Positions 36,124 through 52,770 of a DNA stretch of 64,000 nucleotides are shown here, in pieces. Below the pieces are notes generated by a model. That model did no database searches. It was not told where the DNA came from and saw only the letters and a program-made list of their open reading frames with translations. The stretch's first letter is position 1. The number at the start of each line of letters is the position of its first letter. The stretch comes from Paeniglutamicibacter sp. Y32M11 (lineage in GTDB: Bacteria > Actinomycetota > Actinomycetes > Actinomycetales > Micrococcaceae), in contig NZ_CP079107.1 in NCBI RefSeq assembly GCF_019285735.1, positions 3,658,001 to 3,722,000 on the forward strand. The letters run 5' to 3'. The position numbers and the translations under genes were made by a program.

Positions 36124-36146
36124 CGCCACGAATTGAATAGCAGTAG

Positions 36147-36184
36147 GGACGCCGGAGTCGTTGAGCACAACGATTCCGGCGTCC
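36147..36184 (+). terminator. Intrinsic terminator of the kdgD-ALDH-gudD operon
   Basis: A 16-bp stem with a single G-U pair (36147-36162 with 36169-36184) and a six-base loop, followed by TTAC, lies 23 bp after the gudD stop. Confidence 0.75.
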
Positions 36185-36250
36185 TTACCGCGCTTAAACT
36201 CAGGTCTGGTCCGCGACCACGATCATCAAGGACCAACCGAGGAAGAGAAT

Positions 36251-37621: not shown

Positions 37622-38899
37622 CTAGCTGATTTCGATCTTCATTTCCTCGTACATCTTCTGTGCAGCGTCCTCGGTGCTCAGACGTCCGAAGAACACTTCC
37701 AGTCCGTAGCGGTACAGGATGTCCTGCAGACCACTAAACCCGCGCGGTGGCACCGGTTCGGCGGCGGCAATTTCGTCTTCGATGTCGGCCATGAACTCGG
37801 CCGAGCGAGCGTCTGCTCCATCAAGGGCCGCAACCACTGCTTTACGCACATCGAGGTTGGAGGGAAGTCCGCGGTCTGCCAGGTTGAGCAGGCCAGCTTC
37901 TTCGGAGTTCACCATGAAGTCAATAAACTTTTTGACCTCTTCGGGGTGCTTGGTGCCCTTGGTGGCGGACATGAACATCGATGACTTGAAGAAGGTCTGT
38001 GATCCACCGGCTTCTCCGCTGCGGCCCGGCATGCGCAAGGGGACTAGGTCTTCACCGGAGGCGCCGGAAAGGGCGGTGAGTTGGTTGGTCCACCACATGC
38101 CCATGGCTGCGCCGTTGGTTCCGGTCAACGACCGGTCCGGGCCTGGGCTCTGGTCCTCGGCGATTCCCGAGGCGCTCGGAATGGCTTCGGCCTCCATGAG
38201 TCCCTTGAGCATTTCAAAGTACGAGACGGCATCCGCTGGTTCAAATCCGAGAGTGCCCTCGGCGGTAGTCAACGATTTGCCGTCCTGACGCAGCCAGAAC
38301 TGGAAACCGGCTGGCTCATTGGGTCCGGTTGCACCAAATACTTTGGTATTTTTCGTAATTTTCGCGGAGATGTCACTGTAGTCATCCCAGGTCCAGGTCT
38401 TGTCATCGGGTAATTCGACGCCGGCTTCCTTGAAGAGCGTCGGGTTGGCCATCATCGCCATGGCATTAATTCCGGTGGTGATGCCGACAACGCCGTCCTC
38501 GGTGGTGCCATTGGTGATGGCTGCCTCGTCGAACTTGGAGACATCAACGTCCGAGAGGTCCAGCAATGCTCCACGGTCTGCGTATTCACGCAGATACTTG
38601 TCATCCATCTGAATAATGTCCGGCGCATCATTGGAAGCAACCTGCGTCGCCAGTTTGTCCCAATAACCACCCCAATCTCCATACTCACCCTGGATTTTGA
38701 TGCCGGGGTTCTTGGCTTCGAAGGCATCGATAATCTTCTGGGTTGCCGCTGACCGCGACTCAGAACCCCACCAGGAGAAGCGCAACGTCACGTCTCCATT
38801 GGCGTCTGCGGCATTCCCGTTGCCGCCGCAGCCTGTGAGCGCCAGCGCGGCTATGGACGCCGCCGCCGTAAATTTTGCCAGTCGAGCGAATTTCATCAT
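37622..38899 (-). CDS. Sugar ABC transporter substrate-binding lipoprotein (family 1)
   Basis: A 425-residue family-1 extracellular binding protein. The signal peptide ends at the lipobox ALTGC (near residue 22). Landmarks are VTLRFSWWGSESRSAATQKIIDAFEAKNPGI and QFWLRQDGKSL, and the C-terminal VFFGRLSTEDAAQKMYEEM. The start is 38899 or the adjacent ATG at 38896; GAGGA lies upstream of both. The matching permeases are encoded 11 kb away (49175-51092), and all carry the same LacI box. No ATPase gene is linked, so a shared MsmX/MsiK-type ATPase is expected. Confidence 0.9.
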   Translation of the reverse strand: MMKFARLAKFTAAASIAALALTGCGGNGNAADANGDVTLRFSWWGSESRSAATQKIIDAFEAKNPGIKIQGEYGDWGGYWDKLATQVASNDAPDIIQMDDKYLREYADRGALLDLSDVDVSKFDEAAITNGTTEDGVVGITTGINAMAMMANPTLFKEAGVELPDDKTWTWDDYSDISAKITKNTKVFGATGPNEPAGFQFWLRQDGKSLTTAEGTLGFEPADAVSYFEMLKGLMEAEAIPSASGIAEDQSPGPDRSLTGTNGAAMGMWWTNQLTALSGASGEDLVPLRMPGRSGEAGGSQTFFKSSMFMSATKGTKHPEEVKKFIDFMVNSEEAGLLNLADRGLPSNLDVRKAVVAALDGADARSAEFMADIEDEIAAAEPVPPRGFSGLQDILYRYGLEVFFGRLSTEDAAQKMYEEMKIEIS

Positions 38900-38942
38900 C
38901 GAATCCTCAAGTCTTGTGGTGGAGCACGGTCGCCCGCTCTTG

Positions 38943-38956
38943 GGAAAGCGGTTTCC
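38943..38956. promoter_or_regulatory. LacI-type operator of the sugar-binding-protein gene
   Basis: GGAAAGCGGTTTCC, a 14-bp palindrome with one mismatched pair, lies over the predicted transcription start and just downstream of the -10. The identical 14-mer occurs at 51182-51195 before the permease operon, and a close variant at 40164-40177 before the first dehydrogenase. Confidence 0.75.
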
Positions 38957-38959
38957 AAC

Positions 38960-38989
38960 ACCGTATGTGTGATTGGAATCACCCGTCAA
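38960..38989 (-). promoter_or_regulatory. Predicted promoter of the sugar-binding-protein gene
   Basis: On the minus strand TTGACG (38989-38984), 18-bp spacer, TACGGT (38965-38960). The start point would fall inside the LacI operator at 38943-38956. Confidence 0.5.
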
Positions 38990-39054
38990 GTGCCCTGGCT
39001 ATCTTCGTGATTCCTTTTGCGCATGCATCAATACACAATTGGCAATCATGGAAA

Positions 39055-40071
39055 TCAGGGACAGAACGTGGTGCTTTCGCGCAAAATCGGGGTCCCGTCA
39101 ATCACTCGAACGGAGGCAGCGTCTTCGGCACCCAAGAGCATGAGCGCCGCCTGCTCCCCCATGGAATCCAGGGGCAGCTGGACGGTGGTGATCGAGGGAA
39201 TCATGTCTTCAAGCGTGGCGATGTCATCAAATCCGGCCAGCGCCACGTCCTGCGGAACCCGCAAACCGGCGCGGCGCACGGCGGTCAGCGCGCCGAGGGC
39301 CATCACGTCATTGGCGGCCAGGACGCAGATCTGTCCCTGAGCTATTTCAGCACCCGATGCATCGAGGTATTCGGTCATGACTTCCAACCCGCCATCGCGG
39401 GTAAAGACCCCTGGCAGTACCGCCAAGGCCGATAGTCCGGCCTCATCTAGTCCTTCAATAAATCCGGCATGACGATCTTTCACCGTCACCAGATTCATAT
39501 CTCCGGCCAGGATCACAAAGCGTCGATGTCCAAGCTCCACCAGTTGGCGCACCAGCTCGGTGGCGGAGCCGCGGTTATCAACGCTCAGGCCCAAGGTTCC
39601 CGGCAATGGTTGGCCGATCATGATGACCTTGCCGCCATTTTTTCGGTAAGTTTCCACCGCAGCAATCAGCGGCTCATCGCCGTCAACGGTGCGCGATCCG
39701 GCCAGCACAATCCCCTCGGTCCGGTAGGACATGAAGGCGCGCACGGCTTCCATTTCGGTCTCGCCATCCCTGTCGGTGCTCGAGAGCATGACGCGCAATC
39801 CCGAGCCATGGAGCCCATGCTGCACCCCGTGGGCGATGGAGGAAAAGTAGGGGTCGGCAATGTCGTGCACGATCAAGCCCACCAGGCCCGCCGAGGAGCG
39901 GGCGAGCGCTTGGGCTTGAGCGTTAGGGAAGTATCCCAGGCGCTCGGCGGCACCGCGAACCTTCTCGGCAATCGCTTCCGCCGGGCTTCGCGAGGAGCCG
40001 TTCAAGACCCGGGACGCGGTCGCCGGAGAGACTCCTGCCTCACGGGCCACATCTGCCAGCCGTACGACCAT
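39055..40071 (-). CDS. LacI-family repressor of the sugar/glycoside regulon
   Basis: A 338-residue LacI/GalR protein: HTH RLADVAREAGVSPATASRVLNGS, hinge NAQAQALARSSAGLVGLIV, effector domain with HDIADPYFSSIAHG, ILAGDMNLVTVKDR, VLAANDVMALGALTA and LAGFDDIATLE. I chose the ATG at 40071, which has AAAGGTGG eight bases upstream; a GTG 12 bases earlier overlaps that ribosome-binding site. It lies between the binding-protein gene and the divergent dehydrogenase operon and most likely binds the three GGAAAGCG-type boxes in the window. Confidence 0.9.
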   Translation of the reverse strand: MVVRLADVAREAGVSPATASRVLNGSSRSPAEAIAEKVRGAAERLGYFPNAQAQALARSSAGLVGLIVHDIADPYFSSIAHGVQHGLHGSGLRVMLSSTDRDGETEMEAVRAFMSYRTEGIVLAGSRTVDGDEPLIAAVETYRKNGGKVIMIGQPLPGTLGLSVDNRGSATELVRQLVELGHRRFVILAGDMNLVTVKDRHAGFIEGLDEAGLSALAVLPGVFTRDGGLEVMTEYLDASGAEIAQGQICVLAANDVMALGALTAVRRAGLRVPQDVALAGFDDIATLEDMIPSITTVQLPLDSMGEQAALMLLGAEDAASVRVIDGTPILRESTTFCP

Positions 40072-40133
40072 CTGGAAAACCACCTTTCAATAATTTCGGC
40101 ACGCTGCCGAAACCACACACGCCATTGTGACAG

Positions 40134-40161
40134 TTGACACGTCGATCTAAACGAATATATC
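40134..40161 (+). promoter_or_regulatory. Predicted promoter of the Gfo/Idh-DUF993 operon
   Basis: TTGACA (40134-40139), 16-bp spacer, TATATC (40156-40161); a LacI-type operator begins three bases further on. Confidence 0.55.
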
Positions 40162-40163
40162 TT

Positions 40164-40177
40164 GGAAAGCGCATTCC
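40164..40177. promoter_or_regulatory. LacI-type operator before the Gfo/Idh-DUF993 operon
   Basis: GGAAAGCGCATTCC, a 14-bp palindrome with one mismatched pair, directly follows the -10. It matches the two GGAAAGCGGTTTCC sites elsewhere in the regulon. It could also affect the divergent lacI-type gene. Confidence 0.7.
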
Positions 40178-40225
40178 CACCCACTTTCCCAGATATACCG
40201 ACCCGATTTCAGGAGTCAGAAGACC

Positions 40226-41392
40226 ATGCCGGAAACACAAGTACTTCGTATCGCCATGAACGGTATCACCGGTCGCATGGGTTACCGTCAGCACCTCCTT
40301 CGTTCGATCCTTCCGATTCGTGACCAGGGTGGCATCACTCTGGCCGACGGACGCAAGATCACCGTGCAGCCCATCTTGGTCGGCCGCAATGAAGAAAAAA
40401 TCCGAGAACTCGCCCGCATTCACAAGATCGAGCACTGGACCACCGACCTTGATGAGGTCATCAACGACCCCACCGTCGACATCGTGTTTGATGCCTCGAT
40501 GACCTCCCTGCGCTCACAAACGCTCACCAAGGCCATCAACGCCGGCAAGCACATCTTCACCGAGAAGCCCACCGCGGAAACTCTCGAGGAGGCCATCGAA
40601 CTGGCTCGGATCGCCAAGGCTAAGGGCATCACCGCGGGCGTGGTGCATGACAAGCTCTACCTCCCGGGTCTGGTCAAGTTGCGCCGACTCGTTGATGAGG
40701 GGTTCTTCGGACGGATTCTCTCGCTGCGCGGGGAATTCGGTTACTGGGTCTTCGAGGGTGACATCCAAGCGGCCCAGCGCCCCAGCTGGAACTATCGATT
40801 GGCCGACGGCGGCTCGATGACCACGGATATGTACTGCCACTGGAACTACGTGCTTGAGGGCATCATTGGCAAGGTCAAGTCGGTCACCTCCAAAACTGCC
40901 ACCCATATCCCGGCGCGCTGGGACGAGCAGAACAACGAATACGCCGCCACCGCCGATGATGCCGCCTACGGCATCTTCGAATTGGAGACCCCCGCCGGGG
41001 ATCCGGTGGTCGCACAGATCAACTCCTCGTGGGCGGTGCGCGTGTACCGCGACGAACTCGTCGAATTCCAGATTGATGGCACACACGGCTCGGCCGTTGC
41101 CGGCCTGAACAAGTGCGTGGCCCAGCAGCGCGCCAATACTCCCAAGCCGGTATGGAACCCCGATCTACCCGTCACCGAGTCCTTCCGCGATCAGTGGCTT
41201 GAGGTCCCGGCCAACGACGAACTCGACAACGGCTTCAAGCGCCAGTGGGAAGAATTCCTAGAAGACGTGGCCTACGGCCGCGAGCACCGGTTTGGTTTGC
41301 TGTCCGCCGCGCGCGGCGTGCAGCTGGCGGAACTCGGCCTGCTCTCCGCCGCCGAACGCCGCACCATCGACATCCCCGAGGTCGTGCTGTGA
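40226..41392 (+). CDS. Gfo/Idh/MocA family oxidoreductase (first of three in the cluster)
   Basis: A 388-residue NAD(P)-dependent sugar dehydrogenase. The N-terminal Rossmann fold is atypical (RIAMNGITGRMGYRQHLLRS in place of the usual GxGxxG), followed by the conserved HIFTEKPTAETLEEAIELA (EKP motif, near residue 115) and the C-terminal beta-sheet domain. LADGGSMTTDMYCHWNYVLE carries the active-site acid/His region. AGGAG precedes the ATG. It starts a five-gene overlapping operon (to 46660) under a LacI box. Likely role: oxidation of a sugar, sugar acid or glycoside hydroxyl; substrate unknown. Confidence 0.85.
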   Translation: MPETQVLRIAMNGITGRMGYRQHLLRSILPIRDQGGITLADGRKITVQPILVGRNEEKIRELARIHKIEHWTTDLDEVINDPTVDIVFDASMTSLRSQTLTKAINAGKHIFTEKPTAETLEEAIELARIAKAKGITAGVVHDKLYLPGLVKLRRLVDEGFFGRILSLRGEFGYWVFEGDIQAAQRPSWNYRLADGGSMTTDMYCHWNYVLEGIIGKVKSVTSKTATHIPARWDEQNNEYAATADDAAYGIFELETPAGDPVVAQINSSWAVRVYRDELVEFQIDGTHGSAVAGLNKCVAQQRANTPKPVWNPDLPVTESFRDQWLEVPANDELDNGFKRQWEEFLEDVAYGREHRFGLLSAARGVQLAELGLLSAAERRTIDIPEVVL

Positions 41393-42612
41393 GCCTGGCA
41401 ACCGGCACGACCCTGCTCCTGCCCTCATCCGATGGAAGACTGCGCGAGCACACCATGAAGGCCCCCGGCGCGTGGAGCAAGCCGACCGCACCCATCACCT
41501 CGCGCAACGTGTACGCGGCCGCCCACGTGGTGCCGCAGATGAATGCGGAAAATACTCCCGGATCCCCGGCGGTCTTAGACTGGCAGGCCACCCTGAGCTA
41601 CCGCCACGAACTGTGGTCCTGGGGTCTAGGCGTTGCCGATGCCATGGATACCGCGCAGCGCGGCATGGGATTGGACTGGTCGGCCACCCAGGAACTGATT
41701 TCCCGCTCGGCGGCGGAAGCAGCTTCCGTGGTGCACAGCGCGCCGGCCGCACTACGCGGCAAAAGCGTGCGGGATCTGATCTCCTGTGGCGTGGGCACCG
41801 ACCAACTGGTGTTGGAAAACCTCCCCACCGGCGACGCCGGACTTCAAGCCGTTCAGGCCGCCTACCTTGAACAGCTCGAGGTCGTTGAGGCAGCCGGTGC
41901 CAAAACCATCATCATGTGCTCCCGCGCCCTGGCCTCAGTGGCCCGGAATGCCGAAGATTACCTGCGGATCTACACGGATCTGCTCAAACAGTCCTCCCAA
42001 CCGGTCATCCTGCACTGGCTGGGCACCATGTTTGATCCAGCTCTGGCCGGATACTGGGGATCCGCCGACATATCGGTCGCCACCTCGACGTTCCTGGAAC
42101 TGATCAACTCGAACCCCGAGAAGATCGACGGGGTGAAGGTATCGCTGCTCGATGCCGAACACGAAATCCAGTTGCGGGCAGCCCTGCCGGCGGGAGTACG
42201 CCTGTACACCGGGGATGATTTCAACTATCCCGAGTTGATCCGCGGCGACGGGCAGCGCCACTCCGACGCCCTGCTGGGCATCTTCGCCGCCATCTATCCC
42301 GCTGCGTCGACCGCCCTGCAGGCCTTCGACGCCGGGGACACGGAGCGTGGATACCAAATCTTGGCTTCCACCCAAGAACTCGGGAAACACATCTTTTCCG
42401 CTCCCACCTTCTACTACAAGACCGGCATCGCATTCCTGGCCTGGCTCAACGGACACCAAAGCGGTTTCCAACTGGTCGGTGGCCTGCACTCCGGGCGCTC
42501 ACTGACACACCTAGCCACCACCTTTGCCCTGGCCGATGAGGCGGGGTTACTGCGTGACCCCGCGGAAGCCGCACGCCGCATGAGCGCCCTACTCACCACC
42601 GGAGGAATCTGA
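41389..42612 (+). CDS. DUF993 family protein (aldolase-like TIM barrel)
   Basis: A 407-residue protein of the DUF993 family, distantly related to dihydrodipicolinate synthase-type barrels. Landmarks are DWQATLSYRHELWSWGLGVADAMDTAQRGMGLDW, ISCGVGTDQL, VILHWLGTMFDPALAGYWG and KIDGVKVSLLDAEHE, where the Lys could be the Schiff-base residue by analogy with class I aldolases (inference). The GTG at 41389 overlaps the previous stop (GTGA); an upstream in-frame ATG at 41245 would overlap the dehydrogenase by 148 bp. The family has no assigned reaction; here a retro-aldol cleavage of an oxidised sugar is possible. Confidence 0.85.
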   Translation: MSLATGTTLLLPSSDGRLREHTMKAPGAWSKPTAPITSRNVYAAAHVVPQMNAENTPGSPAVLDWQATLSYRHELWSWGLGVADAMDTAQRGMGLDWSATQELISRSAAEAASVVHSAPAALRGKSVRDLISCGVGTDQLVLENLPTGDAGLQAVQAAYLEQLEVVEAAGAKTIIMCSRALASVARNAEDYLRIYTDLLKQSSQPVILHWLGTMFDPALAGYWGSADISVATSTFLELINSNPEKIDGVKVSLLDAEHEIQLRAALPAGVRLYTGDDFNYPELIRGDGQRHSDALLGIFAAIYPAASTALQAFDAGDTERGYQILASTQELGKHIFSAPTFYYKTGIAFLAWLNGHQSGFQLVGGLHSGRSLTHLATTFALADEAGLLRDPAEAARRMSALLTTGGI

Positions 42613-43496
42613 TGAGTTTTGAACTATCCCTGAACACCGGGACCATACCCAACCTTTCTCTTGATGAGGCGATTCGCTACACCGCAGAGGCAGGTTTGAG
42701 CCATATCGGTCTCTGGCGCCACCTGCTGGTGGACGGTGCGGAGGCAGCAGCCAAGGCAGTATCGGCGGCGGGCCTCAGCGTCTCCTCGCTGTGCCGCGGC
42801 GGATTCCTCACCTCCTCCGATGCCGAAGGTCAGGCGGCCGCGCTGGAAGAAAACCGGGAGGCCATCCGCGAAGCCGCGGCGCTGGGCACCGGCGAATTGA
42901 TCATGGTGGTCGGCGGACTCCCGGCGGCAGCCCACGTCTTGGGTGGAACGGGCGACCGCGCCGACAAGGATGTAGCAGCCGCCCGAGCCCGGGTAGCTGA
43001 CCGGCTGGCCGAACTGGTGCCCTACGCCGCAGAACACGGGGTCCGGCTGGTTTTAGAGGCCCTGCATCCGATGTACGCCGCCGACCGCGCCGTGCTCTCC
43101 ACGCTGGATCAGGCCCTCGATCTGGCGGCCCCCCACGCCCCGGCAACCGTCGGCGTCGTGGTGGATACCTTCCATGTGTGGTGGGATCCGCGTCTTGCTC
43201 AGGCCATCACCCGCGCCGGGATTGAGGGCCGGTTGGCCAGTTACCAGGTGTGTGACTTCAACCTGCCGATCGCCAGCGACGCGTTGAAGTCCCGTGGCAT
43301 GATGGGCGATGGCTACGTTGATTTCGCCTCCATTTCTCTGGCTGTAGCGCAGGCCGGGTACACCGGTCCGGTTGAGGTGGAGATCTTTAATGAAGAAATC
43401 AACAACCAGGATCCGGCGCTCACGCTGGCCACCATGAAGGAACGCTTTGAGCAATTGGTCTTGCCGTCGTTGCAGACTGCCAGCGCGCTGGTGTAA
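42612..43496 (+). CDS. Sugar phosphate isomerase/epimerase-like TIM barrel
   Basis: A 294-residue xylose-isomerase-like (AP endonuclease 2 family) barrel. Metal-ligand and active-site features are LVLEALHPMYAADRA (Glu, near residue 148), GVVVDTFHVWWDP (Asp-His), and GPVEVEIFNEEIN near the C-terminus. SLCRGGFL and GDGYVDFASI are also typical. Start and upstream stop share one base (TGATG). Members epimerise or isomerise keto-sugars or cleave 3-keto-glycosides; the exact role here is unknown. Confidence 0.87.
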   Translation: MSFELSLNTGTIPNLSLDEAIRYTAEAGLSHIGLWRHLLVDGAEAAAKAVSAAGLSVSSLCRGGFLTSSDAEGQAAALEENREAIREAAALGTGELIMVVGGLPAAAHVLGGTGDRADKDVAAARARVADRLAELVPYAAEHGVRLVLEALHPMYAADRAVLSTLDQALDLAAPHAPATVGVVVDTFHVWWDPRLAQAITRAGIEGRLASYQVCDFNLPIASDALKSRGMMGDGYVDFASISLAVAQAGYTGPVEVEIFNEEINNQDPALTLATMKERFEQLVLPSLQTASALV

Positions 43497-43595
43497 CACC
43501 GCCTGACCCGGGGGCATCGATCGAACGTGGTTGCTGCCCCCGGCATCATTTTGAGCGTCGCGGATCAACTCCGTCCAACATCTGAAGGAGCGAGA

Positions 43596-45578
43596 ATGAG
43601 TATCCCCGCTACACGCATTTGCCTCGTGGGCATTCGCGGTTTTGGCCTGCGCCACCTGGAAAACATCCGTGCGCTGGAAGCCAGCGGACTCGTGGAGCTG
43701 AGCTGTGCCGCGGATCAATGCGTTCAGGATGGTGATCAGCCCCTGGGTCCGAACGTACGGATGTACAACTCGCTGGCCGCCGTCGCGGCATCCGGGGAAC
43801 CGGTGGATATCGTGGTGCTCGCAACGCCCATCAATACGCACTTCGAGTTGGGTATGATCGCCGTTTCCATGGGGGCGGATCTGCTCCTGGAAAAGCCGCC
43901 GACGGCAACACTGGCACAATTCGAGGAATTACTGGCAGCCTCCCGGCAGGCCGGGACCCGCATCCAGGTCGGCTTCCAGTCCCTGGGCTCGCACGCCCTG
44001 GGCGCCATCACCGAGCTATTGGATTCCGGGCGCATCGGTCAATTGCGGGCCGTCGGCGCGACGGGCATGTGGCAGCGCGACGCCGCCTACTATGCTCGTT
44101 CACCCTGGGCGGGGAAACGAGTCCTCAATGGGGTCCAGGTGGTTGACGGGGTGATCACCAATCCGCTGGCCCATGCGGTGATGACCGCCCTACATATTGC
44201 CGGAGCGCAAGAAACCACCGACATCCTCCAGCTGGAGACCGAGCTATTCCACGCCAATGACATCGCGGCGGATGACACCTCCACGGTCCGCGTCCAAACG
44301 AAACACGGCATACCCGTCACCTGTGTACTGGCCACCACCGCCGCCGAACAACAGGATCCGTTCATCACGATCTTCGGCACCGAGGGGCAGGCGATCTTCC
44401 ACTACACGCGCGATGAACTGGCCATCACGGGCGCCGACGGGCAGCGCACCGTGCGCACGTTTGGTCGCACCGATCTTTTGACCAACCTGATCGCCTCGCG
44501 CGCTGATCAAAACATCAATCTGCTCAGTGGGCTGGAACGCACCGGCGCCTTCATGCGCGTGCTCGAGGCCGTGCGCACCTCCGACGATCCAACCGCCATC
44601 AATCCGGAGCACCTGAACGTGGTGGGTCAGGGACCCACCCAATATGTGGTGGTCCCGGGGATCGAAGAACTGGCGCAACGGGCCATCAAGTCCCCCGCAA
44701 CGTTCTCCTCACTCGGCGCGCCCTGGGCCGCTCCCGCGCCCGCCGGAGAGCCGCTGCTGGTGGCAGGTCGGGAGGTCGCGGGGGTGCGACTGGGCACCGA
44801 GCTGTCCCCCACGAACTCACCTCGACCCTTCCTGCACCCGGTGTCCACGCTCACCGGCACCATCCTCACCGACCAGCAGCCGCTTGACCACACCTGGCAT
44901 CTGGGTGTTGGAGTGGCCATTCAGGACGTTGACGGGGTGAACTTCTGGGGCGGTCGCACCTATACACGCGAGGCAGGCCGCTACATCTGGCGCAAGGACC
45001 ACGGCCATATCACGCTGCTCTCCTCCGAAACGAATGAAGGGCGCCGCGACGATACCCTCGCCTGGATCGGGCCGGATGGACAAACCATTCTGGATGAGGA
45101 ACGCACCATCAACGCGACACCCGGTGCCAACGGAACATGGGAACTTGGCTACGACTTCACCCTCACGCCGCACGGCTCCGCGTCGGTGGCCCTGGGTAGC
45201 CCGGGCTCCAATGGCAGGGTGGCCGGTGGCTACGGCGGATTCTTCTGGCGTCTGCCAGCGGTTGAGAACGCGGAGATTTTCACCATTGATGCACGCGGTG
45301 AGGAAAACGTGCATGGGTCCGTCTCCCCGTGGCTGGCCTTTGCGGCTGACTTCGGCGGCTCCGCGGCGACCCTAATTTTCCATGCCACGGATGATGATCC
45401 GTGGTTTGTGCGCTGCGCCGGATACCCGGGCATTGGGCGCTCGCTGGCCTGGGACAGCCCGGTGACCACCACCCGAGCGAACCCGGTGTCTCGTTCTGTA
45501 CGGGTCATCGTCGCCGACGGCCGCCTGGGCGCCAACGAGGTTCTTGGGCTGTTGTCCGGGGCAGGCGTTCGGGCATGA
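43596..45578 (+). CDS. Fusion of Gfo/Idh/MocA oxidoreductase with DUF6807 (PmoA-like) domain
   Basis: A 660-residue protein made of two domains. Residues 1-360 are a Gfo/Idh/MocA dehydrogenase (ICLVGIRGFGLRHLENI Rossmann start, LLEKPPTATLAQFEEL EKP motif, QVGFQSLGSHALGAI). Residues 380-660 form a DUF6807/PmoA-type beta-rich domain with LDHTWHLGVGVAIQDVDG, NFWGGRTY, WRKDHGHI and GYGGFFWRLP. The two parts are usually separate proteins. The ATG at 43596 has AAGGAG upstream. The fusion implies sequential action on, or substrate delivery between, the two sites. The last four bases overlap the M24-like gene. Confidence 0.85.
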   Translation: MSIPATRICLVGIRGFGLRHLENIRALEASGLVELSCAADQCVQDGDQPLGPNVRMYNSLAAVAASGEPVDIVVLATPINTHFELGMIAVSMGADLLLEKPPTATLAQFEELLAASRQAGTRIQVGFQSLGSHALGAITELLDSGRIGQLRAVGATGMWQRDAAYYARSPWAGKRVLNGVQVVDGVITNPLAHAVMTALHIAGAQETTDILQLETELFHANDIAADDTSTVRVQTKHGIPVTCVLATTAAEQQDPFITIFGTEGQAIFHYTRDELAITGADGQRTVRTFGRTDLLTNLIASRADQNINLLSGLERTGAFMRVLEAVRTSDDPTAINPEHLNVVGQGPTQYVVVPGIEELAQRAIKSPATFSSLGAPWAAPAPAGEPLLVAGREVAGVRLGTELSPTNSPRPFLHPVSTLTGTILTDQQPLDHTWHLGVGVAIQDVDGVNFWGGRTYTREAGRYIWRKDHGHITLLSSETNEGRRDDTLAWIGPDGQTILDEERTINATPGANGTWELGYDFTLTPHGSASVALGSPGSNGRVAGGYGGFFWRLPAVENAEIFTIDARGEENVHGSVSPWLAFAADFGGSAATLIFHATDDDPWFVRCAGYPGIGRSLAWDSPVTTTRANPVSRSVRVIVADGRLGANEVLGLLSGAGVRA

Positions 45579-46660
45579 GCCGCGTGGCGACGGTGTTGAA
45601 CCCCGAGCTCACGACCAAGCACCAGCGTCTGCTGCTGATCCTTGAAGCACGTGGTGCCGACGCTCTGGTGTTGGATTCCCCCGCGGCGCTGAGTTGGTTC
45701 TTGGCCGGTGCGCGAACCCATGTTTCGCTCGCCGGTACCCCGGTGGCCCACGTGCTGGTTCACCGGGGCGGTGCCTGCCTTCTGGTCTTTAACAACGAAG
45801 CCGAACGTCTGGTGGCCGAAGAATTGCCGGCGGGACTAGAAATCTACTCCGTACCCTGGCACGCGTCGCTGGGTGAGTCCTGCGCACGCGTGGCGAAGGA
45901 ACGTGGTTTTGCCCAGGTCTTGGCGGAGGCGGACGTGGCGCTGGAACTGCGGGCTGCCCGTGCAGCATTGCTTGACGTGGAGCAGGACCGCTACCGGCGC
46001 CTGTGTGTTGACACCGCCCGGATCCTGACCGATGTGTTGCAGGGTGCTACCCCGCACGACAGTGAGCGAGAGATTGCTGCCCTTCTGGCCGCCCGCGTGG
46101 TGGGTAGTGGCAGCGACCCATTGGTGGTCTTGGTTGCCGGGGAGCAACGTCTGGGCAACAGGCATCCACTGCCGACCGATTCCCCGGTGGGCAACAGGAT
46201 GATGGCCGTGCTGTGTGCCAGGCGCGATGGCCTGATAGTGAATGTGACTCGTTGGGTCTCCTTCACTCCACACACTGCGAAGCAGCGGCGTGATGAGGAG
46301 GCGATCCTTGCGGTTGAGGCCGAAATCCTCGCCGCGACTCGTCCCGGTGTCAGCTTGGAATCGTTGCTGCCGGTGATCGAACAGGCCTATCCGCGCCACG
46401 GCTTTGCGCCGGATGAAATCATGCGTCATCACCAGGGTGGGCCCACCGGCTACGCGGGCCGCGATCCGCGCCTAGTGCCGGGTATCAGAGACACCATCGT
46501 GGCGGGGCAGGCCTTTGCCTGGAACCCATCGGCTCCCGGCGTGAAGGTGGAGGACACCATGCTGCTGGGTCATGAAGGGTTTGAGGTCCTCAGTGTTGAT
46601 GAGCGCTGGCCCAGCGTGTCGGTTGCTGGGCTTCAGCGCCCCGCGATTCTGGAGCTCTAG
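45575..46660 (+). CDS. M24 (creatinase/aminopeptidase P) fold protein with altered metal ligands
   Basis: A 361-residue pita-bread-fold protein with an N-terminal creatinase-like domain (residues 1-130) and an M24 domain. In metallo-members the ligands are D, D, H, E, E. Here the DxTR position reads NVTR (Asp to Asn, near residue 222) and the first late Glu reads WNPSAPG (Glu to Asn); only VEDTMLL keeps its Glu. It is therefore probably metal-free, as in creatinase, or non-catalytic. The ATG at 45575 overlaps the preceding stop; it ends the LacI-controlled operon. Its job in sugar breakdown is unknown. Confidence 0.75.
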   Translation: MSRVATVLNPELTTKHQRLLLILEARGADALVLDSPAALSWFLAGARTHVSLAGTPVAHVLVHRGGACLLVFNNEAERLVAEELPAGLEIYSVPWHASLGESCARVAKERGFAQVLAEADVALELRAARAALLDVEQDRYRRLCVDTARILTDVLQGATPHDSEREIAALLAARVVGSGSDPLVVLVAGEQRLGNRHPLPTDSPVGNRMMAVLCARRDGLIVNVTRWVSFTPHTAKQRRDEEAILAVEAEILAATRPGVSLESLLPVIEQAYPRHGFAPDEIMRHHQGGPTGYAGRDPRLVPGIRDTIVAGQAFAWNPSAPGVKVEDTMLLGHEGFEVLSVDERWPSVSVAGLQRPAILEL

Positions 46661-46680
46661 AAAGACGCTCCCCCAGCTGA

Positions 46681-46721
46681 AAAGTGGGGTTACCCCGACT
46701 CCGGGGCAATCCCACTTTTTG
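46681..46721. terminator. Intrinsic terminator after the Gfo/Idh-DUF993 operon
   Basis: A stem pairs AAAAGTGGG (46681-46689) with CCCACTTTT (46712-46720) and an inner CCCC/GGGG helix, followed by TTTTT on the plus strand. Runs of A on the other side make it potentially bidirectional. Confidence 0.85.
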
Positions 46722-46741
46722 TGGTGGGGTGAATAAGAAGA

Positions 46742-46787
46742 GGCACGTTCTCTTCACCCTGACGAACGTGTGAAAAGAACGTGCCTA
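46742..46787. terminator. Second hairpin, probable minus-strand terminator
   Basis: A perfect 11-bp stem (46742-46752 with 46777-46787) with an inner TTCAC/GTGAA helix lies 17 bp beyond the stop of the minus-strand epimerase gene. Together with the previous element it separates two convergent operons of the same regulon. Confidence 0.6.
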
Positions 46788-46803
46788 CCGTGCCTCTCTG
46801 GCC

Positions 46804-47730
46804 TTAGTGGCTGAGCACCGGCTTTGGCTGGTCCACCAGCTCGGTGCGCCAGCTGCGCTTGGGCTCCCAGCCCAAGACGGTCCGGGCGCGCTCGATACTA
46901 AAGGCGGGAGCGGTTCCGGTTAATCCAGCCGCCAATGCTTCGCTGCCCGGCACATAGTGCGGTAGCAATTCGCTGAGCGGTCGGGTAGCTAGGGCATCCT
47001 CTGCACCCACAAAGAAGGTGGACCCGTTCTGAATCGAATCCATCTTCGCCAGCAGCAACAAAAGGAAGTCGGTGACATCGCGGGCATCCACGTAGTTAAA
47101 CAGCGAGGGTGCCGCGAGCTGTGGATCTTCGAGTCGTTCGGTAACGGTGTGCCCCTGCTGGGTCGGCGCCCCTTGCCATTCTTCCGGTGCGATCACGTAA
47201 CAAGGACGGAAGGAAGCGAAGCGTGCCGTCTCACCGTACTCGGCGGCAAACATGGCAGCGACCTGTTCGGCCACCAATTTGGACAGACCGTAGGCATTCC
47301 ATGGACGCGGGATGGTGTCCTCGGTGATGGGGAAGGAATCGGGTAACCACCCGGCAGGTGCTCCATAACCGATGACGGTGGGGCTGGAGGCCAGCACGAT
47401 CCGCCGGCATCCCGCAGCCAGCGCTGCGGCGGTGACATTGTGTGCGATCGTCGCGTTGGTCTTCAGGATCACCGGTTCCGGTGCGCTGAAGGGCACGGCG
47501 ATGGCGGCCAGGGAGATCACTGCCTCCGGACGCACCGAGGCAAAGGCCTCGAAGGTTTTCTCGGTGTCCATCAGGTCCACGGCGAGGTACTTGGCCCCGG
47601 GCTCCGGGGCCTCGGGCAGATGTTGGTCAACGGAGGTGACGCTATGGCCGGCGGCCAGCAGTCCTGCCACCACGCTGCGTCCAAGTCGTCCCGAGCCACC
47701 GGTCACCAGAATGTGTTCGGTATGTCCCAT
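46804..47730 (-). CDS. NAD-dependent epimerase/dehydratase (extended SDR)
   Basis: A 308-residue extended short-chain dehydrogenase. NAD-binding motif TGGSGRLGRSVVAGLL (near residue 10), SLAAIAVPF, catalytic Ser in VLASSPTVIG and Tyr/Lys in YGLSKLVAEQ (near residue 150). FNYVDARDVTDFLLLLL and the C-terminal LGWEPKRSWR are typical. It is the last gene of the permease operon, 10 bp after a Gfo/Idh/MocA gene. Related enzymes oxidise or epimerise sugars or uronates; the substrate is unknown. Confidence 0.85.
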   Translation of the reverse strand: MGHTEHILVTGGSGRLGRSVVAGLLAAGHSVTSVDQHLPEAPEPGAKYLAVDLMDTEKTFEAFASVRPEAVISLAAIAVPFSAPEPVILKTNATIAHNVTAAALAAGCRRIVLASSPTVIGYGAPAGWLPDSFPITEDTIPRPWNAYGLSKLVAEQVAAMFAAEYGETARFASFRPCYVIAPEEWQGAPTQQGHTVTERLEDPQLAAPSLFNYVDARDVTDFLLLLLAKMDSIQNGSTFFVGAEDALATRPLSELLPHYVPGSEALAAGLTGTAPAFSIERARTVLGWEPKRSWRTELVDQPKPVLSH

Positions 47731-47740
47731 ATCAGCCAGC

Positions 47741-49120
47741 CTATCGCCCCGCCGGAACAGGGTGCGCGCTCTTCGCCGCGCCCATTTCCAGCCCGAGGTC
47801 CGCCACGTCCACTGGAGATCCGGTGCTCAGCGAATCGTTGCCGGCAATGCCCACGGCAATCGCCGCGACCCCGTCACTCAGACCCGCGGGACGGGCATAG
47901 TCATCTTCGACGGCACCGCGGAAAATGTCGGCGAGCAGGAGCTTATCCCCACCACCGTGGCTTCCCTCGCCGTTGCGGATCTCCAGTTCCACCGCGGCTT
48001 CCCAGTGCCGTTGCACCACCAGCCGCTCGCCACGGCGGCGCACCAGAGAGTCCTGCCCATCCACCGAGACCGAGGGGTCCACCGGGGATCCACCGGCGGC
48101 CGGGAGCACCGCTGCGCGTTCGATAACATCCAACTCGAGTCGCCCCTCGGTGCCGTTGATGGCCACCCGGTAGCCCTCCCAGGGGCTGTGGGCGTTCAGC
48201 GAATAGGTAAGCAGTGCACCGTGAGCGTAGGTGACGGTCAGCGCCAGGTTGTCCTCGATGTTGATCTCGCCGCTGAACACGTCCTGGTCGCGACGGTAGC
48301 CATCCAGGTGTTCGTTATCTAGGTAGAGGCCCTTCAGTTTCGGGTCACTGCGCAAGTCCAGGGCAAACGGATCGGCCTGCGAACCTTCAAAGGTCCCGCG
48401 TTCGTGCTCGCGGTGCTGCCCGCGCTCCGCCGCATTCTCCGGACCGTAGAAGGCCAGCGATCCTGCGGCGTAGACGCGCGCCGGGACATCATCGAGCCAC
48501 CAGTTGACCAAGTCAAAGTGGTGGCTGGACTTATGGATCAGCAGGCCACCGGAGTTCGCTTTCTGCCGGTGCCAGCGTCGGAAGTAGTCGGCCCCGTGGA
48601 CGGTGTCCAACATCCAGGTGAAGTCCACCGAGGTGACCTTCCCGATTTGCCCCTCAAGCAGCGCCCTTTTCAGCGCGGTGTTCCGCGGGGAATAGCGGTA
48701 GTTAAACGTCACGATCACCTTGCGCCCGGTCGCCTCGGCGGTGTTGGTGATGCGTTGGGCGTCTGCGGCATTGATGGTCAGTGGCTTTTCCACCACCACG
48801 TCGGCGCCGGCCTCAAGGGCGGTGCAGATCATCTGGGCGTGGGTGAAATCGGGGGTGGTGACAATGAGCCGGTTGATGTTCTTCGAACGAATGAAATCGG
48901 CCAGATCGGCGGGGGCGAAACCCTCGATTTTCTCGCCGTAGCTCTGCTCGATGAGGTCCTCGAAATATTCGAGGCGGCCGGGGTTGGTGTCGCTCAACCC
49001 CACGAGTTCCGCCACGTCGGCGTGCTCACCCAGAATGGCATGGATGTACATCTCGCACCGATTGCCGGTGCCAACGATGGCGTAGCGGCTTCGTGCCTGG
49101 GGTGTGTCCTCGAATTGCAC
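47741..49120 (-). CDS. Gfo/Idh/MocA family oxidoreductase (third in the regulon)
   Basis: A 459-residue dehydrogenase, longer than the usual 330-390. Rossmann start YAIVGTGNRCEMYIHAI, EKP motif VVVEKPLTINAADAQRI (near residue 110), active-site segment GGLLIHKSSHHFDLVNWWLDD with the conserved Lys-His. The extra length is an insertion near residues 225-275 (SLAFYGPENAAERGQHREHERG) as in some larger bacterial sugar oxidoreductases. A GTG start at 49120 is supported by GAGGAAAGG. It lies 54 bp after the permease genes. Confidence 0.88.
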   Translation of the reverse strand: MQFEDTPQARSRYAIVGTGNRCEMYIHAILGEHADVAELVGLSDTNPGRLEYFEDLIEQSYGEKIEGFAPADLADFIRSKNINRLIVTTPDFTHAQMICTALEAGADVVVEKPLTINAADAQRITNTAEATGRKVIVTFNYRYSPRNTALKRALLEGQIGKVTSVDFTWMLDTVHGADYFRRWHRQKANSGGLLIHKSSHHFDLVNWWLDDVPARVYAAGSLAFYGPENAAERGQHREHERGTFEGSQADPFALDLRSDPKLKGLYLDNEHLDGYRRDQDVFSGEINIEDNLALTVTYAHGALLTYSLNAHSPWEGYRVAINGTEGRLELDVIERAAVLPAAGGSPVDPSVSVDGQDSLVRRRGERLVVQRHWEAAVELEIRNGEGSHGGGDKLLLADIFRGAVEDDYARPAGLSDGVAAIAVGIAGNDSLSTGSPVDVADLGLEMGAAKSAHPVPAGR

Positions 49121-49174
49121 GTAGTGGGCCTTTCCTCGGTGGTTCAGTCGGTGGGTCTGCTGGAGGTGAGTGGT

Positions 49175-50170
49175 TTATTTCATGCCGGTGGTGGCGATGC
49201 CCTTGACCAGGAATTTCTGGCCCAGGACGAAGGCAATGAACACCGGCAGCAGGGTCACGATCGACATCGCAAACAGTGAGCCCCAGTTGGATTCGCTCGT
49301 GGCATCAACAAAGGCGCGCAGCGCGACGGGAACGGTGAACATATCCGGATCGGTCAGGTAGATCAGTGAGGAGAAGAAGTCGCTCCAGGTCCAGATGAAG
49401 GTGAAGATCGTGGTGGTGGCCAGGGCCGGAATCATCAGCGGCAGAATCACCTGGAGGAAGATGCGCGGGTGACCGGCGCCGTCGATGCGGGCCGCCTCAT
49501 CGATGTCGCGAGGAATGCCGCGAATGAACTGCACCATCAGGAAGATGAAGAAGGCGTCGGTGGCCAACAGCTTGGGCACGATGAGCGGCAGGAAGGTGTT
49601 GACCCACCCGAGCTGCGAGAACATGATGTACTGCGGCACGATGATCACGTGGATCGGCAGCATGATGGTCATCAACATGATCGCGAAGAACAAGCCCTTG
49701 AACCGGAACTCGAGCCGGGCGAAGGCGTAGGCGGCCATGGAGCAGGAGACCAGGTTGCCGATGATGGAGCCCAGGACCACTATCGCGGAGTTGAGCATGA
49801 AGTGCCCGAACGGGTGCGAAAGTGAGTTCCAGCCCTCCGAATAGTTTTGCCATTCGAAGGTCTGCAGGAACAGTCCCGGTTCGCGGAAAATGACGTCGGT
49901 GGGGCGCAGCGAGCTGACCACCATCCAGAGCAGCGGGTAGATCATCACCGAGGCCACCGCGATGATCATCAGGTGCTTGAGCAGCGACCTGAGGACCGAG
50001 TACTTGGCCTTGCGTTCCCTGCGGCGCAGGGCCCGCAGGCGGTTGCGTTGTTCGCGGGGAAGTCGTTCCTCATCCAGCGCTGCCTGCGCGGCGATCAATT
50101 CGAATTGTTCATCCGCGCTCGTGGCTGCCTTCCGGTCGTCCTTGAGAGGGGATTTGATTTGCTCAGTCAT
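49175..50170 (-). CDS. Carbohydrate ABC transporter permease (MalG-type)
   Basis: A 331-residue inner-membrane permease with six TMs and the EAA loop DIDEAARIDGAGHPRIFLQVILPLM. The N-terminus is extended by about 65 charged residues (DERLPREQRNRLRALRRRERKAK) before TM1, which is unusual for MalG proteins and may form a cytoplasmic helix. It overlaps the partner permease by 8 bp. Confidence 0.9.
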   Translation of the reverse strand: MTEQIKSPLKDDRKAATSADEQFELIAAQAALDEERLPREQRNRLRALRRRERKAKYSVLRSLLKHLMIIAVASVMIYPLLWMVVSSLRPTDVIFREPGLFLQTFEWQNYSEGWNSLSHPFGHFMLNSAIVVLGSIIGNLVSCSMAAYAFARLEFRFKGLFFAIMLMTIMLPIHVIIVPQYIMFSQLGWVNTFLPLIVPKLLATDAFFIFLMVQFIRGIPRDIDEAARIDGAGHPRIFLQVILPLMIPALATTTIFTFIWTWSDFFSSLIYLTDPDMFTVPVALRAFVDATSESNWGSLFAMSIVTLLPVFIAFVLGQKFLVKGIATTGMK

Positions 50171-51092
50171 CGTAGAACACCCAATACTTTGAAGCTAGGA
50201 AGTTGACAGCCGTGAACGCACCGACAATGACCACCAGCAGCCAGGCAATGGCCGAGGCGTAGCCCATATCGAATCGTCCGAAGCCCTGTTGGTAGAGGTA
50301 GAGCGTGAAGAACATGGTCGAGTCCGAGGGCCCGCCCTTGCCACCGGAGACGATAAACGCCTGGGTGAAGGACTGGAAGGCACCGATGACCTGCAGGACC
50401 AAGTTGAAGAAGATGATCGGGCTGATCATCGGCAGCGTGATGGTCACAAACTGACGGAATCGTGAGGCACCGTCGATCGATGAGGCCTCGTAGTACATCA
50501 CCGGAACCTGGCGCAGGGCGGCCAGGAAGATAATCATGGGAGATCCGAAGGTCCACACGTTAAGCAGGATCAGCGTGCCCAGTGCGGTGTTTGGGTCCGA
50601 GATCCAGCCCGGACCCTGAATGCCGATCATGGCCAGGAACTGGTTAACCAGTCCGCTGGTGCCGAAGATCTGCTTCCACAGCACCGCGATGGCCACGGAA
50701 GAACCGAGCAGCGAGGGCAGATAGAAGATCGAACGGTAAATGGCCAACCCGCGCATTCCGCGGTTCAGGAGCAGGGCGACGCCCAGCGCTAGAGCCAACT
50801 GCAAGGGAACACCCACCAGAACGTAGATGAAGGTGACCTTCAGCGAGTTGTGGAGTCGCGCGTCCCCCATCATCCGCTCAATGTTCTCAAAGCCGCTCCA
50901 CACCGGAGCCTGCAAGAGGTTGTAGTCGGTGAAGGAGAGGTAAAGCGACATGAACATCGGACCGATGGTGATGGCCACCAGCCCGATCAGCCAAGGCAAC
51001 AGGAACCAATAGGCTGCCTTATTATCCTTGTGTTTGATCTTGGTCCGCCCCGAACTCCTTTTGAGTTGGGAGAGTTCTCCGAGAGCACTCAT
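50163..51092 (-). CDS. Carbohydrate ABC transporter permease (MalF-type)
   Basis: A 309-residue permease: TM1 (YWFLLPWLIGLVAITIGPMFMSLYLSF), NYTDYNLL-like outer segment, and the EAA loop YYEASSIDGASRFRQFVTITLPM. The ATG at 51092 has AAAGG upstream; a start 144 bases earlier would run through the promoter and the LacI box. It is the first gene of a four-gene minus-strand operon (two permeases, Gfo/Idh/MocA, epimerase). No ATP-binding gene is present. Confidence 0.9.
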   Translation of the reverse strand: MSALGELSQLKRSSGRTKIKHKDNKAAYWFLLPWLIGLVAITIGPMFMSLYLSFTDYNLLQAPVWSGFENIERMMGDARLHNSLKVTFIYVLVGVPLQLALALGVALLLNRGMRGLAIYRSIFYLPSLLGSSVAIAVLWKQIFGTSGLVNQFLAMIGIQGPGWISDPNTALGTLILLNVWTFGSPMIIFLAALRQVPVMYYEASSIDGASRFRQFVTITLPMISPIIFFNLVLQVIGAFQSFTQAFIVSGGKGGPSDSTMFFTLYLYQQGFGRFDMGYASAIAWLLVVIVGAFTAVNFLASKYWVFYDD

Positions 51093-51181
51093 GAACCTGC
51101 CTTTGCTGTGGTGCCGCGGGCAGGAACATTGCTCCTGCTGGGCGGACGATGGACGTTCAACATGCTCGTTCTCCTGATTTG

Positions 51182-51195
51182 GGAAAGCGGTTTCC
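51182..51195. promoter_or_regulatory. LacI-type operator of the permease operon
   Basis: GGAAAGCGGTTTCC, identical to the site at 38943-38956, lies just downstream of the predicted -10 and 90 bp before the permease start codon. This links the permeases to the distant binding-protein gene. Confidence 0.75.
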
Positions 51196-52675: not shown

Positions 52676-52770
52676 GCCTGGCGCCACACCGCTAGGATAT
52701 CCGTCGGTGCCCGACCCGCATGGCGGAATCGCTTCCCTTAGCTCACCTCACCACCAACAAAGGCCTTCCG

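What the first reader, a model, noticed from the sequence alone, without database searches (positions are those of the whole stretch)
37622..51195. LacI-controlled regulon for an unidentified sugar or glycoside
Three LacI-type boxes, two of them identical 14-mers, lie just after the -10 of three promoters. They join a sugar-binding protein, two permeases, three Gfo/Idh/MocA dehydrogenases, a DUF993 protein, an isomerase-like barrel, a Gfo-DUF6807 fusion, an M24-fold protein and an epimerase. The box positions and gene order are seen directly. The idea of an oxidise-then-cleave route for a modified sugar, cyclitol or glycoside is inference. DUF993 and DUF6807 have no assigned reactions, so the set may encode an undescribed pathway.
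Basis: partly seen in the sequence, partly recalled or inferred. Interest (0 to 1): 0.82.

Follow-up and report, generated by a model that had tools for sequence, protein, structure and literature searches.

The report
LacI regulon for oxidative glycoside catabolism
One sugar-responsive repressor appears to control three neighbouring operons that import and oxidise a plant-type glycoside; two of the enzyme families have no known reaction, and the closest relative with a published role lies in a plasmid gene cluster for oxidising xylose.

Summary
GGAAAGCGNWTTCC occurs exactly three times in the 4.17-Mb genome, all at the claimed promoters (control 0). The same three promoters carry a matching box in 7 of 11 relatives with these genes, four of them from other genera (0 of 800 shuffles as good). 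The box before the first dehydrogenase recurs in many actinobacteria and changes with the LacI recognition helix.

The locus is two modules. Module A (Gfo dehydrogenase-DUF993-isomerase beside LacI) is widespread. Module B (transporter, Gfo-DUF6807 fusion, M24-fold protein, second Gfo, PF01370 SDR) lies elsewhere in other Micrococcaceae with another LacI and sugar-acid genes. Here both sit under module A's regulator. In a 149-genome family sample all 36 DUF6807 genomes also have DUF993, although 14 have no linked copy.

Best reading: import of a plant-type, possibly uronic-acid, glycoside; oxidation; cleavage; sugar-acid routes to 2-oxoglutarate and perhaps glycerate. Chemistry, substrate and operator binding are inferred. 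The first dehydrogenase is 84% identical to its pAO1 counterpart, reported (recalled) to oxidise D-xylose, so the pathway is not wholly undescribed. No paper in the searched library holds 'DUF993'; the one holding 'DUF6807' says nothing of its function.

The parts
37622..38899 (-). Sugar ABC transporter binding lipoprotein (SBP_bac_8/SBP_bac_1); ORF listed to 38989, probable start ATG 38899 or 38896
   Evidence: Pfam; starts
38942..38956 (.). Box 1, GGGAAAGCGGTTTCC, just after TTGACG-18-TACGGT on the - strand
39055..40083 (-). LacI-family regulator (HTH plus Peripla_BP_3), recognition helix SPATASRVLNGS; divergent from GfoA
   Evidence: Pfam; covariation with box
40164..40177 (.). Box 2, GGAAAGCGCATTCC, directly after TTGACA-18-TATCTT, between LacI and GfoA
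40226..41392 (+). GfoA, Gfo/Idh/MocA dehydrogenase; 84% identical to the pAO1 plasmid counterpart; PDB relative 3oqb
41389..42612 (+). DUF993 protein (407 aa), start overlaps GfoA stop; PDB relative 4dnh (uncharacterised); K250 invariant in both alignments
42612..43496 (+). Isomerase-like TIM barrel (PF01261); PDB relatives 7vpf, 3ju2, 3qc0
43596..45578 (+). Gfo dehydrogenase fused to DUF6807; ORF listed from 43527, probable start ATG 43596; DUF6807 domain encoded by about 44697-45575
45575..46660 (+). M24-fold protein; start overlaps the previous stop; three of five usual dimetal ligand positions appear replaced (motif recalled)
46804..47730 (-). SDR of PF01370 (epimerase/dehydratase family), last gene of the permease operon; no NCBIfam equivalog reached its cut-off
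47741..49120 (-). GfoB, Gfo/Idh/MocA dehydrogenase
49175..50170 (-). PermB, sugar ABC permease
50163..51092 (-). PermA, sugar ABC permease; ORF listed to 51236, probable start ATG 51092
51181..51195 (.). Box 3, GGGAAAGCGGTTTCC, palindrome 12 nt after the -10 of TTGACG-17-TAGTGT on the - strand
51494..52675 (+). Mandelate-racemase-family (enolase superfamily) protein, divergent from PermA; probably outside the regulon (no box at its own promoter) but next to PermA in 7 of 8 relatives read that far
52720..53946 (+). Glycerate kinase (TIGR00045, 379.3 against cut-off 168.45)
30984..37192 (+). Adjacent LysR regulator, KdgD (over cut-off), aldehyde dehydrogenase, glucarate dehydratase (782.5 against 828.7) and AEC carrier; no LacI box in this stretch; proposed to supply the lower sugar-acid route

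Best explanation
The LacI protein at 39055 represses three promoters, including its own divergent region, by binding an imperfect palindrome (consensus TTGGAAAGCGCTTTCCAA) placed where RNA polymerase sits, and releases it when a sugar or intermediate is present. The regulon joins two modules. Module B: SBP/PermA/PermB import a plant-derived glycoside; the Gfo-DUF6807 fusion oxidises its sugar ring with NAD(P) and DUF6807 breaks the weakened glycosidic bond; M24 and GfoB take part in that release; the PF01370 SDR oxidises the freed sugar (perhaps a uronate) to a sugar acid, which a mandelate-racemase-type dehydratase, KdgD and an aldehyde dehydrogenase turn into 2-oxoglutarate. In this genome KdgD and the aldehyde dehydrogenase are encoded next door, beside a LysR gene. 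Module A: GfoA, the TIM-barrel isomerase and DUF993 oxidise, isomerise and cleave the other half or a common intermediate, DUF993 perhaps acting as a Schiff-base lyase through K250, with glycerate kinase taking up a three-carbon product. Shown by sequence: boxes, promoters, gene order, families, conservation and co-occurrence. Inferred: operator binding, every reaction and the substrate. My separate estimates: single LacI regulon 0.9; two functionally coupled modules 0.7; oxidative non-phosphorylative glycoside route 0.6; a uronic-acid glycoside 0.3.
For: Boxes: 3 exact genome hits, all here. In 11 relatives read at the GfoA, SBP and PermA promoters, all three score at least 14 of 18 in 7 (G005, G007, G014 of the genus; G034, G105, G253, G258 of other genera), 0 of 800 shuffled upstream regions reach 14, and the PermA box lies 100-122 nt before the start in the 9 relatives where it scores 14 or more. 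G004, with module A but no PermA or SBP relative found, has a box at GfoA. Upstream of GfoA 48 of 93 loci score at least 14, versus about 0.05 expected in a shuffled set of 103; helix SxATASR goes with GGAAAGCGCTTTCC-type boxes, the Streptomyces helix SPATVSRVLNGN with GAAAGCGCTTGC. Module A: in 105 DUF993 loci GfoA is present in 103, isomerase in 101, LacI in 93. Module B with M24, MR, SDR and GfoB: 11 of 20 fetched stretches, 9 with a LacI-like gene beside GfoB and 8 with an ALDH; the gene between SDR and MR in L210 is KdgD-like, 395.7 against 278. Co-occurrence: DUF6807 in 36 of 149, DUF993 in 50 of 149, all 36 inside the 50 (hypergeometric 2e-23, by genus 13 of 13 within 18 of 32, 2.5e-5). 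Glycoside context: a Gfo-DUF6807-cupin set beside a xylanase and an arabinofuranosidase in Streptomyces; PermA/PermB 69/65% identical beside Gfo-DUF6807-cupin on pTC2. pAO1 counterpart. DUF993 K250 aligns with the KdgD Schiff-base lysine (role recalled), P 0.02.
Against: No reaction was tested. hhalign gives DUF993-KdgD homology a probability of only 2.3-2.7%, and a forced global alignment finds nothing. In 4 of the 11 relatives not all promoters have a high-scoring box: G117 (SBP 11 at best), L075 (SBP 13), L071 (SBP 12 at best, PermA not read), L081 (SBP 10, PermA 12). 45 of 93 loci lack a high-scoring box at GfoA, many being Streptomyces with a different consensus, others probably misplaced start calls. 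The SDR, both stand-alone Gfo proteins and MR reach no NCBIfam equivalog cut-off, so uronate dehydrogenase is a guess. GH10, a lifestyle marker, also tracks DUF993 (13 of its 15 genomes), so part of the co-occurrence is ecology. GfoA's pAO1 counterpart is reported (recalled) to prefer D-xylose, a pentose. In some alpha- and betaproteobacteria DUF993 and the isomerase sit with acyl-CoA dehydrogenase, CoA-transferase and enoyl-CoA hydratase and without a close GfoA, which this scheme does not explain. KdgD, ALDH and glucarate dehydratase carry no box.
Confidence: 0.5

Rival explanations
1. Oxidative pentose catabolism of the pAO1 type: GfoA is a D-xylose (or related aldose) dehydrogenase, and the sugar acid goes through dehydratase, DHDPS-type and aldehyde dehydrogenase steps to 2-oxoglutarate; module B delivers xylose from xylo-oligosaccharides.
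For: GfoA 84% and DUF993 69% identical to pAO1 genes lying with an aldehyde dehydrogenase annotated for D-xylose catabolism and a glycerate kinase; publication title on a pAO1 oxidative xylose pathway; DUF6807 beside a xylanase and an arabinofuranosidase; the SDR-MR-DHDPS-ALDH set also fits a Weimberg-type pathway (recalled).
Against: KdgD next door just passes the six-carbon glucarate equivalog cut-off and sits with a glucarate dehydratase homologue. An isomerase and DUF993 are not part of the Weimberg pathway as I recall it. The pAO1 aldehyde dehydrogenase and sugar transporter gave no match to the window's own.
Confidence: 0.25
2. 3-keto-glycoside pathway: Gfo enzymes oxidise C3 of a plain glucoside or of levoglucosan, and the PF01261 barrel beta-eliminates it, as with LgdA/LgdB1 or AtOGE; DUF993 and DUF6807 are accessory.
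For: Gfo plus PF01261 or isomerase-family proteins are the enzyme kinds of those pathways (passages read); the levoglucosan dehydrogenase model is the best NCBIfam hit of GfoA.
Against: GfoA scores 74.3 against a cut-off of 650. The isomerase's closest PDB relatives are named xylose isomerase, sugar isomerase or uncharacterised. DUF993 loci keep GfoA and the isomerase but mostly no transporter.
Confidence: 0.12
3. Cyclitol or methyl-inositol catabolism: GfoA or GfoB is an inositol-type dehydrogenase, the barrel an inosose dehydratase-like enzyme.
For: iolG, iolE and IolO models give weak hits to the Gfo proteins and the barrel.
Against: All far below cut-off (44-86 of 355; 23 of 290; 36 of 300); context is glycoside and sugar-acid.
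Confidence: 0.05
4. The modules are neighbours by accretion of plant-polymer genes and share a regulator without sharing a pathway.
For: Modules A and B occur apart with separate LacI genes; GH10 also tracks DUF993.
Against: No DUF6807 genome lacks DUF993 in 36 of 36; one operator set in this lineage and several other genera; genes of both modules follow each other on one strand from 40226 to 46660 with gaps of at most 99 nt.
Confidence: 0.1

Closest known systems
pAO1 plasmid sugar cluster of Paenarthrobacter nicotinovorans (published as an oxidative xylose-catabolic pathway, Mihasan et al. 2013)
   Same: GfoA (84%) directly followed by DUF993 (69%) and a glycerate kinase (38%)
   Different: GntR-family gene beside it, a different four-gene ABC transporter, GMC oxidoreductase and aldehyde dehydrogenase; no isomerase, DUF6807, M24, GfoB or SDR annotated or matched there. 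The paper itself was not held; only its title was seen.
Levoglucosan dehydrogenase pathway (LgdA/LgdB1/LgdC)
   Same: Gfo dehydrogenases plus PF01261 barrels and an ABC importer in Paenarthrobacter (passages)
   Different: GfoA far below the LgdA equivalog cut-off; DUF993 and DUF6807 not mentioned in the passages read
Agrobacterium O-glycoside beta-eliminase system (GlycDH, AtOGE, AtHYD, Gfo)
   Same: Oxidise, eliminate, hydrate, reduce logic with isomerase-family proteins (passages)
   Different: Flavoenzyme first step; no DUF993 or DUF6807 in the passages read
Oxidative uronate/aldarate route (uronate dehydrogenase, dehydratase, KdgD, 2-oxoglutarate semialdehyde dehydrogenase)
   Same: PF01370 SDR, enolase-superfamily protein, KdgD-like protein and aldehyde dehydrogenase together in the unlinked module B of L210 and around this window
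   Different: Neither the SDR nor the MR protein reaches an equivalog cut-off; the pathway definition is recalled

Membership tests
LacI-family local regulon | LacI HTH plus periplasmic-binding-like sensor domain | tested here: met
   PF00356 48 bits, PF13377 96.1 bits
LacI-family local regulon | Palindromic operator with central CG at target promoters, conserved with the regulator | tested here: met
   (7 of 11 relatives with all three)
LacI-family local regulon | Protein binds the operators and responds to a sugar | not testable with these tools
   needs mobility shift or reporter assay
pAO1-type oxidative xylose cluster | Closely related Gfo sugar dehydrogenase next to DUF993 | tested here: met
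   84% and 69% identity, same order
pAO1-type oxidative xylose cluster | Same aldehyde dehydrogenase, GMC oxidoreductase and transporter in the cluster | tested here: not met
   PermA, PermB, SBP and ALDH of the window gave no match on L193 at 1e-8; annotation
pAO1-type oxidative xylose cluster | Enzyme oxidises D-xylose | not testable with these tools
   reported for the pAO1 enzyme from recall only
Levoglucosan dehydrogenase (LgdA) | NCBIfam NF052479 cut-off 650 bits | tested here: not met
   74.3, 43.5 and 65.9 bits for the three Gfo proteins
Inositol catabolism (IolG) | TIGR04380 cut-off 355 bits | tested here: not met
   58.9, 44.4 and 86 bits
Oxidative uronate/aldarate route | KdgD over curated cut-off in the neighbourhood | tested here: met
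   TIGR03249 374.1 against 373.95 at 32206, a bare pass
Oxidative uronate/aldarate route | A uronate dehydrogenase | tested here: inconclusive
   SDR of PF01370, no equivalog reached; no PDB hit at 1e-15
DHDPS/NAL class I lyases (for DUF993) | Detectable profile homology and Schiff-base lysine | tested here: inconclusive
   K250 aligns with KdgD lysine but probability 2.3%, P 0.02; global alignment fails
M24 dimetal peptidases | Five metal ligands D, D, H, E, E | tested here: not met
   24 aligned sequences, read by eye, show Cys/Arg, N, H, N and E at the expected motif positions (motif recalled, no reference peptidase was in the alignment)

The most novel reading that the evidence does not exclude
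DUF993 is a new family of Schiff-base lyase and DUF6807 a new glycoside-cleaving enzyme that acts on the ring oxidised by its own fused dehydrogenase; together they define a widespread oxidative route for plant glycosides, built from two separately regulated modules that this lineage has put under one LacI protein.
Probability: 0.3. Interest if true: 0.8.

Novelty: new variant of a known kind. Interest (0 to 1): 0.52.

Why it matters
DUF993 (solved as 4dnh but unnamed) and DUF6807 (no PDB relative found) are common in Micrococcaceae, and DUF993 also in Streptomyces and rhizobia, yet neither has an assigned reaction. The regulon supplies a defined operator, a likely importer, a fused two-domain enzyme and a co-occurrence rule that make both families testable in a few experiments. 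It also shows two modules, with separate regulators in relatives, joined under one operator set.

Tried and rejected
Structure prediction of DUF993 was tried once and is switched off, so no fold comparison was possible. DUF993 against KdgD gave only a weak profile match. Sequence searches of the PDB gave no functional name for DUF993 and no match for DUF6807, for GfoB at 1e-20, the SDR at 1e-15 or MR at 1e-30; the last three cut-offs were strict, so weaker relatives were not shown. Paper searches: DUF993 0 papers; DUF6807 1 paper that only mentions the number; S. meliloti locus tags 2 papers, passages read, no function; LacI regulon papers listed, none opened; 7VPF 0; a gene-set phrase search listed 4 papers, none opened; pAO1 searches did not yield the original paper. 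Rejected: inositol and levoglucosan membership; the box copy at 42458 as an operator (half-site, inside a gene); the GH65-HAD fusion near the Glutamicibacter-type cluster as part of the pathway; recurring unlabelled neighbours of DUF993, the commonest being on the opposite strand and probably shadow ORFs. A first check of the SBP and PermA promoters used start positions that were too far upstream in several relatives and was replaced. I assume that searches drew the same 149 genomes (same size, same handles in the listed parts).

Full report
What is there. The finding's three boxes exist at 38942-38956, 40164-40177 and 51181-51195. In the 4,173,408-base genome GGAAAGCGNWTTCC has three exact hits, all three of them here, and the backward control has none. 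Allowing one mismatch adds five other sites. Each box follows a sigma-70-like promoter (read by eye): TTGACG-18-TACGGT before the binding protein, TTGACA-18-TATCTT before GfoA, TTGACG-17-TAGTGT before PermA. Start codons were re-examined: the binding protein probably starts at 38899 or 38896, PermA at 51092, the Gfo-DUF6807 protein at 43596 and M24 at 45575. The controlled units are then SBP; GfoA-DUF993-isomerase-Gfo/DUF6807-M24, with gaps of at most 99 nt; PermA-PermB-GfoB-SDR; and LacI, divergent from GfoA across box 2.

More than chance. The pattern comes from the sites themselves, so independent evidence matters. I scored the GfoA, SBP and PermA promoters of 11 relatives against TTGGAAAGCGCTTTCCAA. 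All three reach 14 of 18 or more in 7: G005, G007, G014 (same genus), G034, G105, G253 and G258 (other genera). G117 and L075 have high scores at GfoA and PermA but 11 and 13 at SBP; L071 and L081 only at GfoA (PermA of L071 was not read). Of 800 shuffled regions none reaches 14. Upstream of GfoA, 48 of 93 loci that have a LacI gene score 14 or more, against about 0.05 expected per shuffled set of 103 sequences (both shuffles keep single-base content only). The operator changes with the recognition helix: SxATASR proteins face GGAAAGCGCTTTCC-type boxes; Streptomyces SPATVSRVLNGN proteins face ATAGAAAGCGCTTGCTAT-type boxes. The remaining 45 loci have no high score, including Streptomyces with the other consensus and loci whose start codon was probably called wrongly.

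DUF993 occurs in 5 of 15 genomes of the genus, 110 of 295 of the family and 24 of 296 sampled from the phylum. It is also on 147 plasmid records, 93 of them Sinorhizobium, Rhizobium or Ensifer. I read 21 annotated plasmid regions with DUF993. In some it lies with the isomerase and a GfoA relative; in others it lies with GMC oxidoreductase, SDR, acyl-CoA dehydrogenase, electron-transfer flavoprotein, CoA-transferase or enoyl-CoA hydratase instead.

Module B. In other Micrococcaceae the Gfo-DUF6807 fusion or pair lies apart from DUF993. Of 20 stretches fetched, 11 have Gfo, DUF6807, M24, MR, SDR and GfoB relatives together; 9 of these have a LacI-like gene beside GfoB (30-34% to the window's) and 8 an aldehyde dehydrogenase relative; the other 9 stretches have fewer of them. 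Three of the 11 (G042, G091, G153) are within 30 kb of DUF993. In L210 the gene between SDR and MR is a KdgD-like DHDPS protein (395.7 bits against 278), MR resembles talarate/galactarate dehydratase (231.9 against 500, below cut-off) and a GH42 beta-galactosidase lies nearby. In the window the KdgD, aldehyde dehydrogenase and glucarate dehydratase lie just upstream, behind a LysR gene; the genome has only one KdgD over the cut-off, this one. Of 52 DUF6807 matches in the family sample, 34 sit in open frames of 670 residues or more, as expected of the fusion.

Coupling. In the family sample of 149 genomes DUF6807 is in 36 and DUF993 in 50, and all 36 are among the 50; hypergeometric 2e-23, by genus 13 of 13 within 18 of 32, 2.5e-5 (neither corrects for kinship). 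From the coordinates, 14 of the 36 have no DUF6807 within 30 kb of DUF993 on the same contig (draft contigs may hide linkage; one of the 14, G023, has only a DUF6807 fragment and a split DUF993). Control: the xylanase family GH10 is in 15 of 149, 13 of them with DUF993. So lifestyle explains part, but no DUF6807 genome escapes.

What the parts may do. GfoA is 84% and DUF993 69% identical to neighbours on plasmid pAO1, next to an aldehyde dehydrogenase annotated for D-xylose catabolism and a glycerate kinase. [quoted passage not shown] From recall, its sugar dehydrogenase prefers D-xylose; that the recalled enzyme is this Gfo gene, and that the title concerns this cluster, is my assignment. DUF993 has one PDB relative, 4dnh, uncharacterised. 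Its K250, invariant in both alignments, aligns with the Schiff-base lysine of KdgD (lysine role recalled) in a weak profile match (P 0.02, probability 2.3%); a forced global alignment finds nothing. DUF6807 has no PDB match and conserves DHxWH and DHG motifs (eight sequences), compatible with a metal or acid-base site. A related DUF6807 set lies among xylanase and arabinofuranosidase genes, and relatives of this transporter (69/65/40%) sit beside Gfo-DUF6807-cupin on pTC2. M24 relatives keep one H and one E but appear to replace three of the five usual metal ligands (ligand motif recalled), so it is probably not a peptidase.

Verdict. The LacI regulon is real as far as sequence can show. The pathway is most likely an oxidative, non-phosphorylative route for a plant-type glycoside; whether the sugar is a uronate, a pentose or something else is open. 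Membership in the levoglucosan or inositol pathways was tested and not met. Literature statements rest on the open-access library only. Of papers, I read passages of PMC12542648, PMC10971088, PMC11387232, PMC10628242, PMC10066097, PMC6305408 and PMC9007349; others only as search listings. The last shows a precedent: DUF1080 proteins as known or proposed 3-keto-glycoside hydrolases.

Noticed in passing
window 30984-37192: LysR, KdgD, aldehyde dehydrogenase, glucarate dehydratase and AEC carrier in a row: an apparent D-glucarate cluster next to the regulon, without LacI boxes.
   Followed up: partly
window 55250-57618: A second LysR gene and a second glucarate-dehydratase-like gene (272.7 against cut-off 828.7), divergent.
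   Followed up: no
window 37569-37609: Perfect 20-nt inverted repeat with a 1-nt loop just past the binding-protein gene, possibly a terminator.
   Followed up: no
window 42458-42472: The 15-mer AAAGCGGTTTCCAAC recurs inside the DUF993 gene without the left half-site.
   Followed up: partly
window 45575-46660 and 23 relatives: M24-fold protein in which three of five usual metal-ligand positions look replaced throughout the alignment (motif recalled).
   Followed up: partly
L181, L187, L189, L190, L191: DUF993 and isomerase in a beta-oxidation-like operon with SDR and acyl-CoA dehydrogenase (flavoprotein, CoA-transferase and enoyl-CoA hydratase in most) in alphaproteobacteria, unexplained by the scheme; L196, a betaproteobacterium, is similar.
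   Followed up: no
L225:8325-14255: On a S. meliloti megaplasmid a Gfo gene, DUF993, a mandelate racemase-like gene, the isomerase and a Gfo gene 37% identical to GfoB follow each other, divergent from a sugar ABC transporter.
   Followed up: no
G023:C1:379764-380957 and G227:C1:3088476-3089381: DUF993 split into three matches in G023, and a second, interrupted copy (1 TGA, 1 TAA) in G227.
   Followed up: no
L039:10354-15850: A 5.5-kb stretch with EamA and ABC genes lies between M24 and the SDR in the nearest relative, leaving the operons and all three boxes intact.
   Followed up: partly
L055:15490-18777: GH65-family enzyme fused to a HAD domain near the binding-protein gene in G253.
   Followed up: no
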